From NCBI GenBank assembly GCA_951813395.1, contig OX638356.1:2087340-2151339 (forward strand): 64,000 nt of DNA. Reading direction: 5' to 3'. Origin of the DNA: Longimicrobiales bacterium. GTDB lineage: Bacteria; Gemmatimonadota; Gemmatimonadetes; Longimicrobiales; Gaopeijiaceae. The notes beneath the pieces were generated by a model that saw nothing but the letters and a program-made list of their open reading frames with translations, did no database searches and was not told the origin of the DNA. The translations under genes were made by a program, and so were the position numbers. Below are positions 11,855 through 52,451 of this stretch, piece by piece. Position 1 is the first letter of the stretch, and each line of letters starts with the position of its first letter.

Positions 11855-13547
11855 AGCGTTGTTGAGCGTGTCCGACAAGACCGGAATCGTCGCGTTCGCG
11901 AGGGCGTTGGCGGAGCATGGCTGGGAGGTGCTCTCGACCGGCGGCACCGCGCGGACGCTTCGCGGGGCGGGCGTGGACGTGACCGACGTCTCGGCGGTAA
12001 CGGGCCACCCGGAGATGATGGACGGCAGGGTCAAGACGCTGCACCCGGCGATTCATGCGGGGCTGCTGGCGCGGCGGTCGCTGCCCGGCGACATGGCGGC
12101 GCTCGCCGAGCAGGGCTACCGCCCCATCGATCTGGTCGCGGTCAACCTGTACCCGTTCCGCCAGGCGATCGCCGAGCCGGGCGTGACCCTCGCCGACGCG
12201 ATGGAGAACGTCGATATCGGGGGACCCACGCTGATCCGTGCTGCCGCCAAGAATCACGTGGACGTCTGGGTCGTGGTGGATCCCGCCGACTACGCCGCCG
12301 TGCTGAAAGCCGTTGCGGCCACGGATTCGGACGGCTCCGCGGCGTCGGACCCGGCCCCGTCCGCGGCGGCGCCAGCGCTGCGCCGGAGGCTCGCGGCCAA
12401 GGTGTACCGGCATGTCTCGGCCTACGACCAGGCGATTGCGGGGTATCTGGAGGGGTTGGAGGAGAGCGTCCGTCCGGACGCGGGACGGGACGAGCCGATG
12501 GCCGGGCGGTTGACGCTGGAGCTGGAGAGGAGGGAGCTGCTGCGTTACGGCGAAAACCCGGACCAGGGGGCCGCCTTCTACGCGGCGACGACCGGCGCTC
12601 ATGGTATTGCAAAACTTGAGCAAATACACGGCAAGAATCTGTCCTACAACAATATACTAGACCTGGACGGTGCGCTTCTCAGCCTGGCCCCGTTCGCGTC
12701 TTCACTCGATCCCGCGGTGTGCATCGTCAAGCATACGACGCCGTGCGGGCTGGCGGTGAGCTCGACGCTGGCGGACGCGTTCGCACGTGCTCGGCGCACG
12801 GATCCCGTGTCGGCTTTCGGCTCGGTGATCGCGGTCAACCGGAGTGTCGATCGTGACACGGCTGCGGAGATCGGTTCCATGTTCGTGGAGTGCGTGGTGG
12901 CCCCCGGCTTCACTCCCGGGGCGCTGGAGCTGCTCACGGCCAAGAGGAGTATCCGGCTGCTGGCCTTTCCCGGCGGCGCGCCGGCGGGCGTCGGCGGGGA
13001 TGGCGATGCCGGCGCGGACCGGGACGCGAAGTCCCGGTTCCTGGCGCGGGCGGCGGGCCACGAGGGCGCCCGTTCGTTCCGCTCCGTGTACGGGGGCGTC
13101 CTCTTCCAGTCGCTGCCCGATCCCCCCTTCCACGGACGCGAGGACCCGGGCTGGAGGGTCGTGACGGCGCGCCGCCCCACTGCGGCCGAACAGGCGGACC
13201 TCTCGTTCGCGTGGTCGGCGGTTGCGAGCGTCAAGTCCAATGCGATCCTGCTGGCGAAGGACCGTGCCACGGTCGGGATCGGTGCGGGACAGACCAGCCG
13301 CGTCGATTCGTCCAGACTGGCCGTGCGCAAGGCTTGCGAGGCCGGGCTGGGGGCGGAGCTCGACGGCTGCGTCCTCGCCTCCGATGCGTTCTTCCCTTTC
13401 CGCGACGGCGTCGACGCGGCCGCCGACGCGGGGGCGCGGGCGATCATCCAGCCGGGCGGGTCGATCCGCGACGAAGAGGTGGTCGCCGCCGCGGACGAGC
13501 ACGGCATCGCCATGGTGTTCACGGGCCGGAGGCTCTTCCGCCACTAG
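11841..13547 (+). CDS. purH: bifunctional AICAR transformylase/IMP cyclohydrolase
   Basis: A 568-residue protein for the last two steps of IMP synthesis. The N-terminal IMP cyclohydrolase domain opens with ALLSVSDKTGIVAFARAL and contains STGGTARTL and GRVKTLHPAIHAGLL. The transformylase part has LRYGENPDQGAAFY, the conserved Lys-His in IVKHTTPCGLAVS, and SDAFFPFRDGVD with the C-terminal QPGGSIRDEEV. GTG 11841 is preferred because GGAGG at 11831-11835 sits five bases upstream; GTG 11835 and 11823 are alternatives. Two insertions, Ala/Ser/Asp-rich near 12325-12375 and Gly/Asp-rich near 12980-13030, make it longer than the usual 510-540 residues. Confidence 0.96.
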   Translation: MARRRALLSVSDKTGIVAFARALAEHGWEVLSTGGTARTLRGAGVDVTDVSAVTGHPEMMDGRVKTLHPAIHAGLLARRSLPGDMAALAEQGYRPIDLVAVNLYPFRQAIAEPGVTLADAMENVDIGGPTLIRAAAKNHVDVWVVVDPADYAAVLKAVAATDSDGSAASDPAPSAAAPALRRRLAAKVYRHVSAYDQAIAGYLEGLEESVRPDAGRDEPMAGRLTLELERRELLRYGENPDQGAAFYAATTGAHGIAKLEQIHGKNLSYNNILDLDGALLSLAPFASSLDPAVCIVKHTTPCGLAVSSTLADAFARARRTDPVSAFGSVIAVNRSVDRDTAAEIGSMFVECVVAPGFTPGALELLTAKRSIRLLAFPGGAPAGVGGDGDAGADRDAKSRFLARAAGHEGARSFRSVYGGVLFQSLPDPPFHGREDPGWRVVTARRPTAAEQADLSFAWSAVASVKSNAILLAKDRATVGIGAGQTSRVDSSRLAVRKACEAGLGAELDGCVLASDAFFPFRDGVDAAADAGARAIIQPGGSIRDEEVVAAADEHGIAMVFTGRRLFRH

Positions 13548-13631
13548 CCGCGGGCCGGGCCGGGCATCGGGTGAGTGTCGCCGGCCCCACGCTTGAATGC
13601 CCCACCCCGCGAGACCATCTTTCCCGGGCCT

Positions 13632-13715
13632 GGAGGGGTGGCAGAGCGGTTCAATGCACCGGTCTTGAAAACCGGCGTCCGCGAGGACACGTGGGTTCGA
13701 ATCCCACCCCCTCCG
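13632..13715 (+). tRNA. tRNA-Ser (anticodon TGA)
   Basis: Folded by eye. The acceptor stem is GGAGGGG (13632-13638) with CCCCTCC and discriminator G at 13715. The anticodon loop CTTGAAA sits between CCGGT and ACCGG, giving TGA, which reads UCN serine codons. A long variable arm (CGTCCGCGAGGACAC) marks a class II tRNA. The T arm is GTGGG-TTCGAAT-CCCAC. CCA is not encoded. Its 3' end is duplicated in the repeats that follow. Confidence 0.96.
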
Positions 13716-13992
13716 TTGAGCGGTAGCGATTGGAGGGGGTGGGGTTCGAACTTGTCGAGCCGGAGGCGGCCGCGCCGGGAGGCGCGGGCGCCGGAGACGG
13801 CTGAGGAGCGGCGGAGCCGCCCCGGAGGCCCATCCCACCCCCTCCGTTGAGCGGTAGCGATTGGAGGGGGTGGGGTTCGAACTTGTCGAGCCGGAGGCGG
13901 CCGCGCCGGGAGGCGCGGGCGCCGGAGACGGCTGAGGAGCGGCGGAGCCGCCCCGGAGGCCCATCCCACCCCCTCCGTTGAGCGGTAGCGAT
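13716..13992. repeat. two tandem 131-bp repeats derived partly from the tRNA-Ser 3' end
   Basis: Two copies, 13716-13846 and 13847-13977, appear identical by eye and are followed by a 15-base start of a third (13978-13992). Each unit ends with ATCCCACCCCCTCCG, the last 15 bases of the tRNA gene. So a 30-bp direct repeat (tRNA end plus TTGAGCGGTAGCGAT) occurs at 13701-13730, 13832-13861 and 13963-13992. Near its start each unit also carries GGAGGGGGTGGGGTTCGAAC, an inverted copy of the tRNA T-arm/acceptor end with one mismatch. GGAGGGGGTGGG and CCCACCCCCTCC within a unit can pair as a 12-bp stem closing a GC-rich loop. No credible gene lies in the block, and 13993-14095 shows nothing recognisable. 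Confidence 0.9.
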
Positions 13993-14095
13993 ACCGCCGC
14001 CGTTTGACGCGGCCGCGCGTCCGGCCAAAAGATCATTCCCAGCGTACCCGCGCCCCGCCCGCGGGAATCCAGTCCGACAGGGAGGCCGCACTCGG

Positions 14096-15325
14096 ATGAT
14101 CCGCCGCATTCAGGCCCTCAACTACCGTTGTTTTCGGCATCTGGATATCGCGCTGGACCGGTTCCATCTATTGATTGGCCCGAATGGCGGCGGGAAGCGC
14201 ACGCTCATCGATACCGTACAGTTTCTGGGAGACCTGGTCCGCGAGGGTCCGGAAGCGGCCGTCGACGCGCGGGCCGGGGATTTTCGGGACCTTGTCTGGG
14301 GCCGGCCCGAACACGACATGCGGTTCGAAATCGCGGTGGAGTTCGCGGTTCCCGCACGCTGCCTCCCCCTCTTGCCGGTGAACAAGGACTTCGGGACCTA
14401 CCGATATGAGGTCGCCCTGGGATGCGGCGCCGACGGAGTCCGCATCGAAGCCGAGCGGGGCGTCCTCATGCCTGCTCCAGGACCAGCTCCGGCCCAGGAA
14501 ACGCTCTTCCCCTATCCGCTGGAGCTGCCGTCCACGATCCTGTCGAGTGCCCGGCCGGGGTCCAGCACTGTGCTAAGCAAGGCCAGCGGCAACGACTGGT
14601 TCTACGCGGAGACCGCCGGTGGGAAGGGCTGGACAAAGATCGGCATCAACTTTGGCCCTCGCCGTTCCACCCTGGGCAGCCTGCCCGAATCCGTGGACAC
14701 AATGCCCGTGACGACCGGGTTCAAGGACTTTCTCGAGCGCCGGGTCCGGCGATTGTCCCTGGACGGAGATGCGCTCGGCGGCCACTGTGCCGGTAATGCC
14801 CCCGACAGGATGCCCGCTGCCGACGGCTCGAACCTGCCTGCGTTGGTGCGCCGGTTGCGGCACGACCGTCGGGGGCGCTTCGAGGAGTGGATGAAGGAGG
14901 TCCGGACCTTGGTCCCGGGGCTGGCGGACATCCGGGTTTCCGAGCGGGAACCGGATCGCGCCGAATACCTGGTCCTCGTCTACGACAACGGACGGGAATC
15001 CCCGGCCTGGCTCGAGTCCGAGGGTACGTTGAAGCTCGTGGCCCTGACCCTGCTCCCTGCGTTGCCGCCGATGCAGGGACTGTGCTGGGTCGTCGAACCC
15101 GAGCGTAGTCTGCACCCGTCCGCTCTGGGCGCTGTTCATCGCGCGCTGTCCACGGTTCCCGGCACACAGGTGTTGGCGTCGACGCATTCGCGCGCTCTGG
15201 TCGACCAGGTCCAGCCGCAACATGTGCTCTGCCTGGACAGGAACCCGGCCGGGGAAGCGCGAGTCGTGCGGGGGAGCGGGCATCTGGAGGCTGGCGAACC
15301 AGCGGACGCCGGGGGCGCGGTGTAG
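14096..15325 (+). CDS. AAA-family ATPase (AAA_21/RecF-like) with degenerate nucleotide site
   Basis: A 409-residue protein that resembles the ABC/SMC-like AAA_21 ATPases of the RecF/OLD group. The N-terminal strand IRRIQALNYRCFRHLDI and loop GPNGGGKRT (residues 28-36) stand where Walker A is expected, but the Ser/Thr after Lys is Arg. The signature region reads LESEGTLKLVALTLLP, and Walker B reads CWVVEPERSLHP (EPE at 334-336), with Val instead of the usual Asp before Glu. A switch-His segment STHSRALVDQV follows. No nuclease (TOPRIM) domain follows; the protein ends in an Ala/Gly-rich tail. The C-terminal residues after LEAGEPADAGG may reflect a frame change. It lies directly downstream of the tRNA-Ser repeats. 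Function unknown; defence or repair is only a guess. Confidence 0.72.
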   Translation: MIRRIQALNYRCFRHLDIALDRFHLLIGPNGGGKRTLIDTVQFLGDLVREGPEAAVDARAGDFRDLVWGRPEHDMRFEIAVEFAVPARCLPLLPVNKDFGTYRYEVALGCGADGVRIEAERGVLMPAPGPAPAQETLFPYPLELPSTILSSARPGSSTVLSKASGNDWFYAETAGGKGWTKIGINFGPRRSTLGSLPESVDTMPVTTGFKDFLERRVRRLSLDGDALGGHCAGNAPDRMPAADGSNLPALVRRLRHDRRGRFEEWMKEVRTLVPGLADIRVSEREPDRAEYLVLVYDNGRESPAWLESEGTLKLVALTLLPALPPMQGLCWVVEPERSLHPSALGAVHRALSTVPGTQVLASTHSRALVDQVQPQHVLCLDRNPAGEARVVRGSGHLEAGEPADAGGAV

Positions 15326-15363
15326 TCGAAGCCGCAAGGGGGCCCCGAAGGCGCTTCTCGCAG

Positions 15364-16593
15364 TTAGCCCCGCAGCGCCGCCGTCGGCATGTACCGGGCG
15401 CCCCGTCCACGTCCCTCCGGACGCAGGAAGCCCAGTTCCACCAACTGCGCGATCTCCTGTGCGGCATCCCGCACGTTGATGCCGAACAGTGTCCTGTATT
15501 CGCTGCTCCGCAGCCACGGATCCTTGCGAAAGTGCTCCCGCAGCTTGGGCAGGCGGTCCTCCAGGAACCAGCGCGCCTCGTCGAGTTCGGCGGTGAGGTA
15601 GCACCTGGTGACCTCGTCACCGGTGTCGAAGTCGCGACAGACGATGTCCCGTTCCACCAGTTCCTGGACGCGCTTCTTGGCCTCATCCTCGTGTACCGAA
15701 TTCAGCTGCTGGTAGTCGACGTGACTGAAACCGTCGGGGCGGGCAAGGAGGATTCGCTTCTGATCACCGGAGATGGGAAGCCGCCTCACCAGGTAGCTCC
15801 ACCCGGGGCCGGCGGTCTCGAACGTCGGCTCCTTGTACAGCGTGACCGAGAAGAGCGGGCTCACCTCCGCAAGCTTGGGCCGCCGCAGAAAACTGGCCGC
15901 CATGTCTGCGCGCATCCGGACGAACCCGCGCCCCTCTGCCCGCATGTACCCGGCGTCGGCGAACACACGCGTCATCAAGGGGTTGCGGGCGGTGGCCGTG
16001 GCCTCGCCCTCTTCCAGCGCCTCCAACGTGACGGGCTCCGGGAGCTCACCGGGGCTCACCACCTCCATGTGGTCGTCGAAGAACCAGATCTCGGCCTGCC
16101 GGTCCTGTACCTCGTAGTCCCGGTGAGCGATGGCGTTCACCAGCGCTTCCTGCCAGGCCTCGTCCGGGTATTCCGGGAGATCGCGGTAGAAAATGTCGCG
16201 CAGGGCATCGGAGCGGCGGATTTGCGCCCTTGTGATTCGACGGATCTCGTCGATCGCGCGCGCCAGGGGTGGATCGGCCCGGCCGGCCCGGTGCACGTTG
16301 CCCGTCCGTCCCGGCAATCGCCGGGTGCCCGTAACGCGAAAGACCCGGATTCCGGCCCGCGGATGCCAGCGGTCGGCCGGCTCCCGTGCGAAGAGCAGGA
16401 GTGCGGCGTTCGTGACGCGCCAGCCTTCGCTGGACGGCTCGACGAGGCCGTACCGCTCGAGCCCCTCGACCGCGGATCCGGCCTTGCCGTCCGGTGTTCC
16501 CGGCAGGAACGACGCCACCAGGTCGAGGTCGAGGTCGTCGACGGTCGCCTCCGGCCTGATTCGCCGCTCGTAGTTTCGTTTGCCGTCGTGCAT
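15364..16593 (-). CDS. GHKL-type ATP-binding protein lacking the AlbA_2 N-terminal domain
   Basis: A 409-residue protein resembling the C-terminal two-thirds of Schlafen-type AlbA_2/HATPase_c_4 'ATP-binding' regulators. The N box is EALVNAIAHRDYE (residues 149-161). The nucleotide-binding segments continue with DDHMEVVSPGELPEPV and AGYMRAEGRGFVRM. Two winged-helix-like regions follow (SHVDYQQLNSVHEDEAKK; DPWLRSSEYRTLFGINVRDA), the second with a DNA-binding look. Relatives begin with about 120 residues of AlbA_2 nucleic-acid-binding domain. Here the ATG is preceded in frame by a stop four codons upstream and the next gene is only 96 bases away, so that domain is absent. It converges on the AAA ATPase with 38 bases between stops. 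Confidence 0.75.
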   Translation of the reverse strand: MHDGKRNYERRIRPEATVDDLDLDLVASFLPGTPDGKAGSAVEGLERYGLVEPSSEGWRVTNAALLLFAREPADRWHPRAGIRVFRVTGTRRLPGRTGNVHRAGRADPPLARAIDEIRRITRAQIRRSDALRDIFYRDLPEYPDEAWQEALVNAIAHRDYEVQDRQAEIWFFDDHMEVVSPGELPEPVTLEALEEGEATATARNPLMTRVFADAGYMRAEGRGFVRMRADMAASFLRRPKLAEVSPLFSVTLYKEPTFETAGPGWSYLVRRLPISGDQKRILLARPDGFSHVDYQQLNSVHEDEAKKRVQELVERDIVCRDFDTGDEVTRCYLTAELDEARWFLEDRLPKLREHFRKDPWLRSSEYRTLFGINVRDAAQEIAQLVELGFLRPEGRGRGARYMPTAALRG

Positions 16594-16689
16594 TTGCGCA
16601 GGTTATCAGGGCCGCATCATCAAACGATCATCACACGGGGCCACATCGCCGGTCGGCGCTGCGGGGCACGTCCGGCCGCACCGACCTGG

Positions 16690-19518
16690 TCAGCTTATCC
16701 GCCGCTTCTTTCTTGCCAATCCGTCCTTCTGCTCGAGATACGGAAGTCCCTTGGTAATCCAGTCCGGTGCCGGCTCGCCCTTCAGATAGTGGGCAAACCA
16801 CTGCAGGATCCGGTCACGGTAGTCCTTCTGGTTGGCTTCGTTGCGCAGCCCGTGGTTTTCGCCCTCGTACACGAGAAGGACCATGTCCTTGCCGGTCCGG
16901 CGGGCCGCGTTGTAGAACTCGACGCCCTGATTGAACTCGACGGCGCCGTCCTCGGTGCCGAACATCATGAGGAGCGGCGTGTTGAGGTTCTCGATGTGAT
17001 GGATGGGCGAGTTGGCGTGGTACGAGTCCCAGTCCTCCCACCAGGGCACCTGCATGCGCCCCTGGCTGATTTCGAAGATGCGCGCGTCGGTTCCCCCGCT
17101 GTTCCAGTAGAAGGACAGGTACATGCTCATGAGGTTGGTGAGGGGCGCGCCCGCGACGGCGCTGGCGAAGAGATCGTCCTGGGTCACGAAGTAGGTGGTC
17201 TGGTAGCCTCCCCACGAGTGTCCGATCAGCCCGATTCGTTCGGGATCGATCATTCCGGTGGCAACCGCGGCCGCCACGGCCGGCCTGAGGGTTTCGACGT
17301 TCGACTGGCCCGGCCGGCGGTCGCGGTAGACGATGTCGGGCATCAGGACGAAGTACCCCTCCTGGCTCCAGGCCTGGACGTTGTAGTAGTTCGTGGCGTT
17401 GGGAACCACGTACCTGTGGAGGGCCTGCGAAAGCATTTCGTAGTGGTACACGATCATCGGGTACTGCGTCCCGGGCTCGTAGCCGGCGGGGTAGATGAGT
17501 GCCCCCTGCAGCGGACGGCCCCACTCGTTTTCGTAGTCGATGAGCTCCGACCGGCCCCAGGCATAGTCGCCGTGGAAGGGGTTGGTGGAGGTGACCTGGC
17601 GCGCGTCGTCCAGGTCCGCTCCGGCCACGAAGAAGTCCGGCGAATCGTCGAAGCGTTCCCGGCGGAAGGCGTACACGTCCCCGTCCCGGGCCTTCAGAAG
17701 GCCCCCGAAGAAGCCGCCGTAGGCCGCGTCCTCCCAGACGAGCTGCCGCGGGGTGTCGCCCGGTCGGGCGCGCGAGAAGCCCGCCTTCTTCGTCCATTCG
17801 CCGTAGGTCGAGTAGTAGAAGGGCTCGTCCGCATCGTATGCGTCCGCTTCGGGGTCGAGACGAAGCAGGCGATGCCGAACCTGCTCTTCGGCGCCGCGCG
17901 TCAGGCGCCGGCCGCCCGATCCGTCGGCGCGCACCTCCCAGACGTCCCAGCGGTCGTTGATCAGGACGGCCTGGTCATCCTCCGTCCAGCCCGCGACGCC
18001 GAATGGCGGCATCTGCTCGCGGGTGGGCGTGAGATCGAGGTTGACGAACACGCCGTCGAGCCCCTCCGTGATGTTGCGCACCTGCCCGCTCTCCAGATCG
18101 TGGCTCCAGTAGTCATCGTCCTCGAACCACAGGACGTAGCGGCCGCCGGGGCTGCCCCCGAGCGTGATGGTCACGCGCTCGCGGACGAGTGTGCGCTGGG
18201 CGGTTTCGGCTTCGACGGCGTAGAGGTCGTGAAACTGCTGCCGGAACATGGCGTCCACGTCGTAGGGGGTCTCGTCGCGGGTCACGACATGTTGCCCTCC
18301 CGCCACGATCGCGGCCTGGTCCGCGTGGTCGCCGCCGAGCTGAAGGAAGCGGTCGCCGTCCAGGTGCCATGCCCCGATGTGGTTGACCCGCCTGAGCTGC
18401 TGCTCCCTCACGCGCTGTTGCGGCACGGGATCCACGTCCCGTGAATGCCAGATCTCGACGCCAGGGGCGTCTTCCTCCTCGGCCGAGTCCGCGGCTTCGG
18501 TTTCCGTGCCGGCCCCCTCGCCATCGCCGTCGCCTTCACCCTCCTCCACCTCCTCCTCCGCCTCTTCTTCCGGCTCGTCGACCGGCCGGCGGTCCTGAAG
18601 GCCGAGGAACAGCGTGCCTCCGTCATCCGACCACGACGGCGCGCGGTGCTCCACCAGGCGAGTCCCTTCGGGCAGCAGCGGTGCATCGCGCGGGTCCAGC
18701 ACGAACGCCCCGCCTTCGCCCTCGTCCAGGGAACGCCAGGCGAGCGCCACGTGGGCGGTGTCCTCGTGGGCGTCGTCGGTGTAGGTCTTGAGGACGGCCA
18801 GGTCCATGGATTCGTCGCGCCACGAAAGACGCCGGTAGATCGCGTCGCCGGTGTCCAGCGATCGGAGACGGCCGGACTCGGGGTCGTAGACCTTCACGCC
18901 GTTGCCGATCCGGTCGTCGGCGTCGACCGTCATTGCGAGAAGGTGACCCTCGTCGCTCCACGCGAGCTGGGACACGTTGCCGAAGCTGAGGGTCGTGCCC
19001 GAGGACAGATCGCGCACCACCACGTCGACCCCGGCGCTCTCCTTCCCTTCGGACTTGTAGCGGCTGAACGCCACGTAACGCCCATCATCGGACAGCGAGA
19101 AGGATTCGACCTCCTCGATCCGTTCCTGCTCGCCGGTCCCCAGGTTCAGCAAGCCGAGCGCGTTGCGCGGGGGCTCCTGCCGCCCCTCCAGCTCCTCGCG
19201 CTCGGCGGGCGATACGCCGATGGAGTAGACCAGCCAGCGGCTGTCCCGGCTGAACGCGGGCCGGGTGGCGAAGGGGATCGCCACGACCGAGTCGGATTCG
19301 GTGGCGTGCACCCGCAACTCGTCCTCGTCGTCGACGCGTCCGATGGCCACCGCCATCCACCGGCCGTCCGGCGACAGCGTGGCCGACCCGAGCGACTCCC
19401 ACTGCCCGTAGTCGTCGGTGGTGAGGGTGGGCTTCTCCTGCGCCTCCGCGCTCGCGGCCATGGCGGCCGCCAGGAGCAGGGTCACGGTCGGGTGGGGGTG
19501 TGCGAGCGGATTCTTCAT
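16690..19518 (-). CDS. secreted S9-family (prolyl oligopeptidase-like) serine peptidase
   Basis: A 942-residue exported peptidase. ATG 19518 gives the signal peptide MKNPLAHPHPTVTLLLAAAM ending in ASAEA; in-frame starts further upstream lack a signal. The N-terminal half is a beta-propeller with repeated SPDGRW / SWRDE / WSDDG motifs. The C-terminal alpha/beta hydrolase domain carries the nucleophile in GLIGHSWGGYQ (Ser about residue 768), the Asp in FGTEDGAVEF and the His in EGENHGLRNE, the full catalytic triad. A very acidic low-complexity insert sits near bases 18470-18590. It probably degrades peptides in the periplasm. It is divergent from ispG. Confidence 0.93.
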   Translation of the reverse strand: MKNPLAHPHPTVTLLLAAAMAASAEAQEKPTLTTDDYGQWESLGSATLSPDGRWMAVAIGRVDDEDELRVHATESDSVVAIPFATRPAFSRDSRWLVYSIGVSPAEREELEGRQEPPRNALGLLNLGTGEQERIEEVESFSLSDDGRYVAFSRYKSEGKESAGVDVVVRDLSSGTTLSFGNVSQLAWSDEGHLLAMTVDADDRIGNGVKVYDPESGRLRSLDTGDAIYRRLSWRDESMDLAVLKTYTDDAHEDTAHVALAWRSLDEGEGGAFVLDPRDAPLLPEGTRLVEHRAPSWSDDGGTLFLGLQDRRPVDEPEEEAEEEVEEGEGDGDGEGAGTETEAADSAEEEDAPGVEIWHSRDVDPVPQQRVREQQLRRVNHIGAWHLDGDRFLQLGGDHADQAAIVAGGQHVVTRDETPYDVDAMFRQQFHDLYAVEAETAQRTLVRERVTITLGGSPGGRYVLWFEDDDYWSHDLESGQVRNITEGLDGVFVNLDLTPTREQMPPFGVAGWTEDDQAVLINDRWDVWEVRADGSGGRRLTRGAEEQVRHRLLRLDPEADAYDADEPFYYSTYGEWTKKAGFSRARPGDTPRQLVWEDAAYGGFFGGLLKARDGDVYAFRRERFDDSPDFFVAGADLDDARQVTSTNPFHGDYAWGRSELIDYENEWGRPLQGALIYPAGYEPGTQYPMIVYHYEMLSQALHRYVVPNATNYYNVQAWSQEGYFVLMPDIVYRDRRPGQSNVETLRPAVAAAVATGMIDPERIGLIGHSWGGYQTTYFVTQDDLFASAVAGAPLTNLMSMYLSFYWNSGGTDARIFEISQGRMQVPWWEDWDSYHANSPIHHIENLNTPLLMMFGTEDGAVEFNQGVEFYNAARRTGKDMVLLVYEGENHGLRNEANQKDYRDRILQWFAHYLKGEPAPDWITKGLPYLEQKDGLARKKRRIS

Positions 19519-19615
19519 GGGATCTTCGTCCTGACGTTTGATTCCGGTAGGTTTCAGGCACCGCGTCGCGGTGGCGGGCCGCAGGGATGTCGATCCGAAC
19601 GTAAGCGAGGAGACC

Positions 19616-51186: not shown

Positions 51187-52451
51187 TGAAGGAGCACGGA
51201 CCGAACCGCGCCGCTCCGTCGGTCGCGCTGTGCGCCGTGGTCGGCCTCGCGGCGGCGCCTGCGGAATGCGGGAGCGGCGGAAGCGGCGAGCCCACGGGGC
51301 CCGACACGACCACGGCCCCGCCGCCCCAGGCGCTGTACAGCGACGTCACCGGCACGCATCTGCCCGGTGGCCTGCTGGCTGGCCTCAGCATGGACGCGGG
51401 CGTCGCCGACTTCGACGCGGACGGTGACCTGGACATTGTGATCGCCAACGAGTTTCGCCCCAACATCCTGCTCCTCAACGACGGGGCGGGGCGCTTCAGC
51501 GACGGCAGTTCCCGGCTCCCCGCCGCCAGCCGCGATTCCGAGGACGTGGGCATCGCCGACTTCGACGGCGACGGCGACTTGGACATCGTGGTCGTCAGCG
51601 AGGACGACCGCACCAACGAGCTGTACTTCAACGACGGGGCCGGCCGCTTCACCGACGAGGGGTCGCGGCTTCCCGTGGAAGGCACCACGAACGGGGTCGT
51701 GGTGGCCGACGTGAACGGAGACGGCCTTCCCGACATCCTGTTTGCCAACAACGGCCAGGACGCGGTCGTCATCAACGACGGCACGGGCAACTTTACCGAC
51801 GAAACCGCGGATCGGCTCCCGCGCTCGGCGGATGTGACCCAGGACCACGAACTCGGCGATGTGGACGGCGACGGGGACCTGGACCTCATTGTGGCCAACG
51901 AGGGCGCCAACGCGCTCTACATCAACGATGGGACGGGGCGCTTCACCGACGAGAGCGAGGCCAGGATCCCCCGGCGCGAAGGAGGCGAAGAAACCCGTGA
52001 GGCCGACTTCGGCGACATCGACGGTGACGGCGACCTCGACCTCCTCTTCGCGAATGTCGCCGCCTTCGTGTCCGGTGCCGACCCGCGCAACCGCCTCCTG
52101 ATCAACGACGGGGACGGCTTCTTCACCGACGAAACCTCTTCGCGGCTGCCGGCTGCGAGCGTGTCGTCCTTCGACGGAGACCTCGTGGACGTCGATGGTG
52201 ACGGCGATCTGGACATCGTCACCGCCAACGCCGACGTCGACCTCAGCGTCGGCCGGATCGCCGACAGCCGGTACCGCGCCTACCTGAACGACGGGGGCGG
52301 CGTCTTCACCGACGCTTCCGACGAGGTGTTTGGAGCGGGCACCCGCGGCACGGGACTCGACCTGGAGTTTGCAGACTTCGACGGCGACGGGCGGGCCGAT
52401 TTCTACCTGGCCAGCCGCGGTACGGCGGACCGGCTCCTGCTGCGGCGCTGA
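51186..52451 (+). CDS. secreted VCBS/FG-GAP repeat protein
   Basis: A 421-residue exported protein. ATG 51186 overlaps the upstream stop. A signal peptide (SVALCAVVGLAAAPAEC) is followed by a Gly/Ser/Thr-Pro linker; the Cys is not in a canonical lipobox. The rest is at least six calcium-type repeats of the pattern DFDGDGDLDIVVVSEDD...LYFNDGAGRFTDE, as in integrin-like propellers. Asp-rich loops imply Ca2+ binding. It probably forms one seven-bladed propeller and mediates binding at the cell surface. Coupling to the VPS10-like gene suggests a shared role. Confidence 0.88.
   Translation: MKEHGPNRAAPSVALCAVVGLAAAPAECGSGGSGEPTGPDTTTAPPPQALYSDVTGTHLPGGLLAGLSMDAGVADFDADGDLDIVIANEFRPNILLLNDGAGRFSDGSSRLPAASRDSEDVGIADFDGDGDLDIVVVSEDDRTNELYFNDGAGRFTDEGSRLPVEGTTNGVVVADVNGDGLPDILFANNGQDAVVINDGTGNFTDETADRLPRSADVTQDHELGDVDGDGDLDLIVANEGANALYINDGTGRFTDESEARIPRREGGEETREADFGDIDGDGDLDLLFANVAAFVSGADPRNRLLINDGDGFFTDETSSRLPAASVSSFDGDLVDVDGDGDLDIVTANADVDLSVGRIADSRYRAYLNDGGGVFTDASDEVFGAGTRGTGLDLEFADFDGDGRADFYLASRGTADRLLLRR

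What the first reader, a model, noticed from the sequence alone, without database searches (positions are those of the whole stretch)
13701..13992. Tandem 131-bp repeats that copy the tRNA-Ser 3' end in both orientations
Two apparently identical 131-bp units and a 15-base start of a third follow tRNA-Ser(TGA). A 30-bp direct repeat containing the last 15 bases of the tRNA is present three times at 131-bp spacing, and each unit also holds an inverted T-arm/acceptor copy. Direct copies of a tRNA 3' end are the signature of site-specific integration. But there is no integrase, and the unit is too short for an element, so this could be a decayed att array, a miniature integrating element, or a self-pairing RNA. 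The 12-bp terminal pairing makes each unit a foldable hairpin.
Basis: partly seen in the sequence, partly recalled or inferred. Interest (0 to 1): 0.62.

Follow-up and report, generated by a model that had tools for sequence, protein, structure and literature searches.

The report
RtT-like RNA repeats behind tRNA-Ser
Behind a bacterial serine-tRNA gene sit two tandem copies of a folded, non-coding RNA unit whose ends mirror that tRNA; the same kind of unit is known from E. coli as RtT RNA, and here it turns up in another phylum and behind many other tRNA genes, each time with ends fitted to its own tRNA.

Summary
In detail: two identical 131-bp units plus a third 30-bp repeat follow tRNA-Ser(TGA), and each unit holds an inverted and a direct copy of the tRNA 3' end. 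It is not unique and not a coding or dispersed element. In this genome (a Gemmatimonadota) single units also follow tRNA-Ser(GCT) and tRNA-Ser(GGA), each fitted to its own tRNA, and nowhere else. Units occur in 19 of 23 species of the genus, with variable copy number. Thirty aligned units support a conserved fold: a closing stem of inverted copy x direct copy, plus three hairpins (63 compensatory cells, 19 expected, 0/500 shuffles). Related units follow tRNA-Pro, -Cys, -Arg, -Leu and tmRNA in relatives, and tRNA-Ser in Verrucomicrobiota and Firmicutes. E. coli RtT RNA, the tyrT repeat, has the same anatomy, and a profile built without E. coli picks out exactly the RtT gene. Best reading: a divergent RtT-like array, co-transcribed with the tRNA and released by tRNA processing. 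The fold and tRNA fitting are shown; transcription and function are inferred. A tRNA-end mobile element is the main rival, since these sites border variable DNA. New variant of a known kind.

The parts
13631..13716 (+). tRNA-Ser(TGA); its last 20 bases (13695-13714) are the source sequence of all copies
   Evidence: ARAGORN and Rfam RF00005
13701..13730 (+). 30-bp direct repeat, copy 0: tRNA positions 59-73 plus 15-base linker
   Evidence: exact repeat family D2
13715..13731 (+). linker GTTGAGCGGTAGCGATT: 3' trailer of the tRNA and 5' leader of unit 1; core G-A-G-C-G-N-N-A-G-C-G-A with a covarying inner pair (GC in 22, AT in 7 of 30 units)
   Evidence: alignment A1, helix 1 columns 7/15
13732..13751 (+). 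inverted copy I1 of the tRNA acceptor/T-arm 3' strand (GGAGGGGGTGGGGTTCGAAC)
   Evidence: 20 nt, 95% complementary to 13695-13714; 12 nt exact complement of 13834-13845
13732..13845 (+). structured unit 1: closing stem (I1 x D1) enclosing hairpins at about 13743-13761, 13765-13792 and 13799-13830
   Evidence: minimum-energy fold; covariation in relatives; R2 hit 13734-13845, 50.3 bits
13832..13861 (+). 30-bp direct repeat, copy 1 (D1 13832-13845 plus linker)
13863..13882 (+). inverted copy I2
13863..13976 (+). structured unit 2, identical to unit 1
   Evidence: 131-bp exact direct repeat; R2 hit 13865-13976, 50.3 bits
13963..13992 (+). 30-bp direct repeat, copy 2 (D2 13963-13976 plus linker), end of the array

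Best explanation
The array is a tandem pair of RtT-like RNA units trailing tRNA-Ser(TGA). Shown by sequence comparison: each unit is a 114-nt structured domain closed by pairing of an inverted copy (I) with a direct copy (D) of the host tRNA's 3' end, with three internal hairpins; I and D are fitted to the tRNA they follow; copy number varies; E. coli RtT has the same anatomy and matches the same profile. Inferred: the units are transcribed as part of the tRNA-Ser precursor. Because every unit ends in a genuine tRNA 3' end (with its discriminator base, and with CCA where the host tRNA encodes CCA) and starts with a stem that imitates acceptor plus T-stem, the tRNA-processing enzymes cut between tRNA and units and release each unit as a small stable RNA, as reported for RtT. 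Within the precursor, I pairs with D rather than with the already folded tRNA (inferred from folding order, not from the energy calculation). The 30-bp direct repeats let copies be gained and lost by recombination. The downstream role is unknown here; for RtT an effect on the stringent response is reported.
For: Conserved fold: 96.7% of cells paired, 63 cells with double changes against 19.1 in shuffles, 0/500. G-T exceeds A-C in paired columns on the tRNA-sense strand (14 columns against 3), as expected for an RNA of that strand. Ends fitted to the tRNA: units behind Ser-GCT, Ser-GGA and Ser-TGA carry their own acceptor sequence; over 17 units at Ser, Pro, Cys, Arg, Tyr and tmRNA the cognate I-D duplex beats permuted partners (mean -20.7 against -16.3 kcal/mol, 0/2000). 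RtT class: the Rfam RtT consensus closes with the same I x D stem; model R2, built with no E. coli sequence, finds E. coli RtT 1285-1401 at 32.6 bits, E 2e-6 in that locus, while tRNA-Tyr itself gets 10.5, and finds both window units at 50.3 bits (one window unit type was in its training set). RtT family RNAs are released from tRNA transcripts, modulate the stringent response and give Northern signals (PMC4986893); one is expressed and cold-induced in Thioalkalivibrio (PMC8092127). No terminator-like site lies in 13300-14200, consistent with co-transcription.
Against: No expression data for this organism. The Rfam RtT model gives no match to the window region at E<=5 or to the genome at E<=10, and R1 does not find E. 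coli RtT, so kinship rests on R2 and shared anatomy. The whole-transcript minimum-energy fold prefers I1 paired to the tRNA end, not to D1, and in 8 units whose D has drifted at its tip, I still matches the tRNA. The unit is dispensable: 4 of 23 congeners have no match, and G016 keeps only a 47-bp remnant. Sense and antisense consensus folds are about equally stable.
Confidence: 0.6

Rival explanations
1. A non-autonomous mobile or selfish element that inserts at tRNA and tmRNA 3' ends. The direct copies are the target duplicated or carried by the element, the folded unit is the recognition structure, and a recombinase elsewhere moves it; tandem arrays are repeated insertions.
For: Units sit behind many different tRNAs and tmRNA with matching ends. 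Interiors of units at different tRNA loci of one genome are as alike (mean distance 0.158) as units at the same locus in different species (0.190). Upstream purH is conserved in 16/16 congeners but the downstream flank matches the window in only 4/15. In G037 five units with tmRNA ends lie away from ssrA, one 16.4 kb downstream, three followed by copies of the ssrA terminator region. In L080 and L190 a truncated tRNA-Ser carries the structure inside its T-loop. G005 and G008 share an identical unit and downstream flank but differ upstream.
Against: No integrase in the window or near the G037 units. No dispersed copies in the window's own genome. No far-end tRNA copy bounding the variable DNA in the window. 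The inverted copy also follows the host tRNA, which a fixed-end transposon would not do.
Confidence: 0.27
2. A co-transcribed switch on the tRNA itself: I pairs either with the tRNA 3' end, a 20-nt duplex that would block the tRNA, or with the downstream D, so the array tunes tRNA-Ser yield.
For: The whole-array minimum-energy fold pairs I1 with the tRNA end. Where D has drifted, I stays complementary to the tRNA in 8 of 8 units.
Against: The drift concerns only the 1-3 outermost bases, and in other units it is I that has drifted. Kinetically the tRNA folds before I is made. Units are absent from several congeners.
Confidence: 0.08
3. A neutral relic: tandem duplications at a tRNA integration hotspot without function.
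For: Copy number varies and some loci hold fragments; the array borders variable DNA.
Against: Compensatory changes keep the fold across a genus and across tRNA types; the same anatomy recurs in several phyla.
Confidence: 0.04
4. Assembly artefact: one real copy duplicated in assembly.
For: The two units are 100% identical; several congener contigs end inside such arrays.
Against: Single-contig genome; congener G008 has two tandem units that differ; arrays of 3-5 similar units in L047, L073 and L090.
Confidence: 0.01

Closest known systems
RtT RNA / tyrT repeats of E. coli (Rfam RF00391)
   Same: Repeats directly behind a tRNA gene; each ends in the last 18-19 bases of that tRNA (AATCCTTCCCCCACCACCA); an inverted copy (GGGGAAGGAT) pairs with it to close the domain; internal hairpins; the GTTCGA motif; variable number (a 175-bp VNTR in Salmonella rtT, PMC2658671). 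Matched by model R2.
   Different: E. coli: tRNA-Tyr, spacing 178 bp in L151, CCA encoded. Here: tRNA-Ser, 131 bp, CCA not encoded, different and GC-richer interior; the Rfam model does not match.
RtT-family sRNAs of Pasteurellaceae (Arrc20, Arrc21; PMC4986893)
   Same: RtT-like RNAs near tRNA genes other than tRNA-Tyr (Asn, Lys), with Northern signals.
   Different: Described as lying upstream of tRNA genes and called by the Rfam model; not tRNA-Ser, not this phylum.
tRNA-targeting integrative elements, T-loop crossover type (own knowledge; attL/attR at tRNA 3' ends)
   Same: Direct copies of the tRNA 3' end from the T-loop to the gene end.
   Different: No integrase, no cargo inside the unit, an inverted copy in every unit, a 131-bp period.
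REP/BIME and REPIN elements (e.g. PMC3116915)
   Same: Short non-coding structured repeats.
   Different: Those are dispersed in many copies; here only behind tRNA-Ser genes in this genome.

Membership tests
RtT RNA (RF00391) | Score above the Rfam gathering threshold (45 bits) | tested here: not met
   No RtT match in the window region at E<=5 nor in the whole genome at E<=10
RtT RNA (RF00391) | Lies directly 3' of a tRNA gene and ends in that tRNA's 3' sequence | tested here: met
   also at Ser-GCT and Ser-GGA
RtT RNA (RF00391) | Domain closed by an inverted copy pairing with the direct tRNA-end copy | tested here: met
   same stem in the Rfam consensus
RtT RNA (RF00391) | Shares a sequence-structure profile with E. 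coli RtT | tested here: met
   R2, without E. coli, hits L151 1285-1401 at 32.6 bits and the window units at 50.3; R1, genus-level only, does not
RtT RNA (RF00391) | Tandem GA motif reported for RtT (PMC7657543) | tested here: inconclusive
   GAGCG-NN-AGCGA is conserved, but in the linker rather than inside the domain
RtT RNA (RF00391) | Transcribed with the tRNA and released by processing | not testable with these tools
   no expression data; only absence of a terminator-like site
Integrase-borne integrative element at a tRNA | Integrase gene within or next to the element | tested here: not met
   No PF00589 match in the window; nearest about 154 kb away
Integrative element at a tRNA | Second tRNA-end copy at the far end of inserted DNA | tested here: not met
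   No copy beyond 13992 in the window; seen in G037 at tmRNA
MITE / REP-like repeat | Many dispersed copies with fixed ends | tested here: not met
   Only the tRNA-Ser copies in the genome; ends follow the host tRNA

The most novel reading that the evidence does not exclude
RtT-like units are one widespread class of mobile, tRNA-tailed RNA elements. They move between tRNA and tmRNA genes and re-tailor both ends, direct and inverted, to each new host tRNA, perhaps by copying from the tRNA itself, so that tRNA-processing enzymes always recognise them.
Probability: 0.2. Interest if true: 0.85.

Novelty: new variant of a known kind. Interest (0 to 1): 0.6.

Why it matters
RtT has stood for decades as an oddity of one E. 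coli tRNA operon with an unclear role. The data here show the same anatomy behind Ser, Pro, Cys, Arg and Leu tRNAs and tmRNA in other phyla, with ends that follow the tRNA. That gives a rule (inverted copy, hairpins, direct copy of the local tRNA end) by which the class can be searched and its function tested by comparison. If the units are released RNAs, tRNA operons carry a hidden family of small RNAs; if they move, tRNA ends host a mobile RNA-structured element that adapts to its site.

Tried and rejected
Coding repeat: the ORFs crossing the array are antisense or translated-tRNA artefacts ('GGGIRTHVSSRT...'), and the interior changes keep pairing, not a frame. Rfam sX4 (37.6 bits, gathering 70) and mir-3179 hits are the tRNA itself. 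Integron attC: GTTGAGC looks like a core site in this one genome, but relatives have GTGAGC or GCTGAGC. Phage origin: the one viral-contig hit is two adjacent tRNA-Ser genes. Acidimicrobiia and Marinicaulis sites (L071, L091, L095, L101, L113) have a direct tRNA-end duplicate about 130 bp downstream but no or only a short inverted match: left out of the class. Sense versus antisense consensus energy did not separate RNA from DNA. Partner choice (I with tRNA or D) is suggestive only. Single-unit duplex shuffles with the 14-nt D alone were too weak to decide per unit. Searches of open papers found no description of this class outside RtT, though most subscription papers are not held. An early note that called the host genus Palauibacter was wrong: named Palauibacter records carry another unit type or none (L064, L108).

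Full report
What is in the sequence. The array at 13701-13992 is real: two exact 131-bp units and a third copy of the 30-bp repeat. Each unit reads: linker GTTGAGCGGTAGCGATT; inverted copy I (GGAGGGGGTGGGGTTCGAAC) of the last 20 bases of tRNA-Ser(TGA); about 80 bases of GC-rich interior; direct copy D (ATCCCACCCCCTCC) of tRNA positions 59-72. The 114-nt unit folds at -81 kcal/mol, z = -5.0.

Same genome. A DNA search finds the unit once behind tRNA-Ser(GCT) (81% identity) and once behind tRNA-Ser(GGA) (89%), and nowhere else. Two covariance models agree. tRNA-Ser(CGA) has none. The ends are not those of the TGA unit: the GCT unit has GGAGGGAG and CCCACTCCCTC, the GGA unit has GACGGGG and CCCACCCCGTCC, each fitted to its own tRNA.

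Genus and family. The genome is a Gemmatimonadota; the nearest named record of its genus is a 'Longimicrobiales bacterium' chromosome (OX639991.1). Model R1 finds units in 19 of 23 species of the genus and in 47 of 394 genomes of the class, nearly all of one family. Copy number ranges from none to two or more per tRNA. At the window's own locus, recognised by the same next gene, G016 keeps only a 47-bp remnant. Several contigs end inside arrays.

Structure. Alignment A1 (30 units) gives a consensus of closing stem P1 (I x D), a second hairpin, a long third hairpin and a fourth hairpin with an invariant CGGC/GCCG stem. With the full structure, 96.7% of cells pair, 11 pairs show double changes, and 63 cells have double changes against 19.1 in shuffles; sliding the partners destroys this. 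In pairs, G-T outnumbers A-C in 14 columns against 3, which favours an RNA read in the tRNA direction, though consensus energies of the two strands hardly differ.

Other tRNAs and phyla. A pattern scan for tRNA-Ser ends repeated 93-123 bases apart returned 103 stretches; those whose second copy lies in another tRNA gene were set aside, leaving 71 unit-like intervals. They lie in Gemmatimonadota, Verrucomicrobiota, Firmicutes (Desulfosporosinus, Dichloromethanomonas), Coriobacteriia and others. In CCA-encoding lineages D is followed by GCCA, and in many the identity to the tRNA stops right there. Units also follow tRNA-Pro, tRNA-Cys, tRNA-Leu and tRNA-Arg, with matching D, and in G037 the tmRNA 3' end is used. 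Tandem arrays of 3-5 occur in L047, L073 and L090. A test over 17 units at Ser, Pro, Cys, Arg, Tyr and tmRNA ends shows that the 5' part pairs best with its own D (0/2000 permutations as low). In a cross-phylum alignment (A2) the I x D stem and second hairpin have 17 double-change cells against 7.4 in shuffles, 0/500.

E. coli RtT. The tyrT/tyrV locus has tRNA-Tyr, then a 178-bp interval with GCGGGGAAGGATGAGAAGC (inverted copy), hairpins, and AATCCTTCCCCCACCACCA. The Rfam RtT consensus pairs exactly these two. The motifs GGATGAGAA and GGTTCGACT recur in Verrucomicrobiota units. Model R2, trained without E. coli, has its best hit in the E. coli locus on the RtT gene at 32.6 bits against 10.5 for tRNA-Tyr. 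In the Gemmatimonadota scan 32-33 bits correspond to roughly E = 0.003 per genome, so the match is good but not overwhelming. The Rfam model itself does not find the window's units. I therefore call it RtT-like, not a member of RF00391.

How it works. Shown: fold, fitting of the ends to the tRNA, copy-number change, class resemblance. From the literature: RtT RNAs are released from tRNA transcripts, modulate the stringent response, and are detectable (PMC4986893; PMC8092127). Inferred: the array is transcribed with tRNA-Ser(TGA) and cut by tRNA-processing enzymes that recognise the imitated acceptor/T-stem and the genuine tRNA 3' end.

The main rival. tRNA-Ser(TGA) marks a border: purH upstream is conserved in all 16 congeners checked, while the downstream flank matches the window in 4 of 15. 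In G047 ispG follows directly, whereas the window has about 5.5 kb (AAA_21 ATPase, HATPase_c_4 protein, S9 peptidase) in between. Units in one genome resemble each other at least as much as orthologous ones. Dispersed tmRNA-ended units and T-loop insertions in truncated tRNAs suggest that the structure can travel or is displaced by islands. Against plain mobility: no integrase near by, no far-end copy in the window, no dispersed copies in this genome. I give this 0.27.

Verdict. A real but under-described feature: a divergent RtT-like array in a new phylum and at a new tRNA, and evidence that the class is widespread and tracks its tRNA. New variant of a known kind; interest 0.6.

Noticed in passing
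window 14096-19530: About 5.5 kb (AAA_21 ATPase, HATPase_c_4 protein, S9 peptidase) lies between the array and ispG; in relative G047 ispG follows the array directly, so this is variable DNA at the tRNA-Ser border.
   Followed up: partly
G037 contigs C38, C78, C73 (L182-L185, L187, L215): Five dispersed units end in the tmRNA 3' sequence; three are followed by copies of the ssrA terminator region, one lies 16.4 kb downstream of ssrA. No integrase near by.
   Followed up: partly
L080 3640-3812; L190: 5'-truncated tRNA-Ser(TGA) with the hairpin domain inserted in the T-loop between positions 58 and 59.
   Followed up: no
L071, L091, L095, L101, L113: Acidimicrobiia and Marinicaulis: direct duplicates of the tRNA-Ser 3' end including GGTTCGA about 130 bp downstream, with no or only a short inverted copy; a different, unexplained arrangement.
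   Followed up: partly
L026, L027 (G005, G008): Identical Ser-GGA unit and about 250 bp downstream in two species whose upstream spacer and other units differ: recent exchange with a breakpoint at the tRNA gene.
   Followed up: partly
L192, L193, L199 (G050, G056): Units with the same interior but ends GGGCCTGGGTAGACTCGAG / CCACTACCGACC that match no recognised tRNA near by; the host gene of these ends is unknown.
   Followed up: no
L081, L085 (MAGs labelled Delta- and Gammaproteobacteria): Units nearly identical to Gemmatimonadota ones in sponge MAGs: either binning error or transfer between phyla.
   Followed up: no
window 51392-51675: 153-bp repeat, 1.9 copies, apparently a coding repeat of the Asp/Gly-rich FG-GAP/VCBS type.
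   Followed up: no
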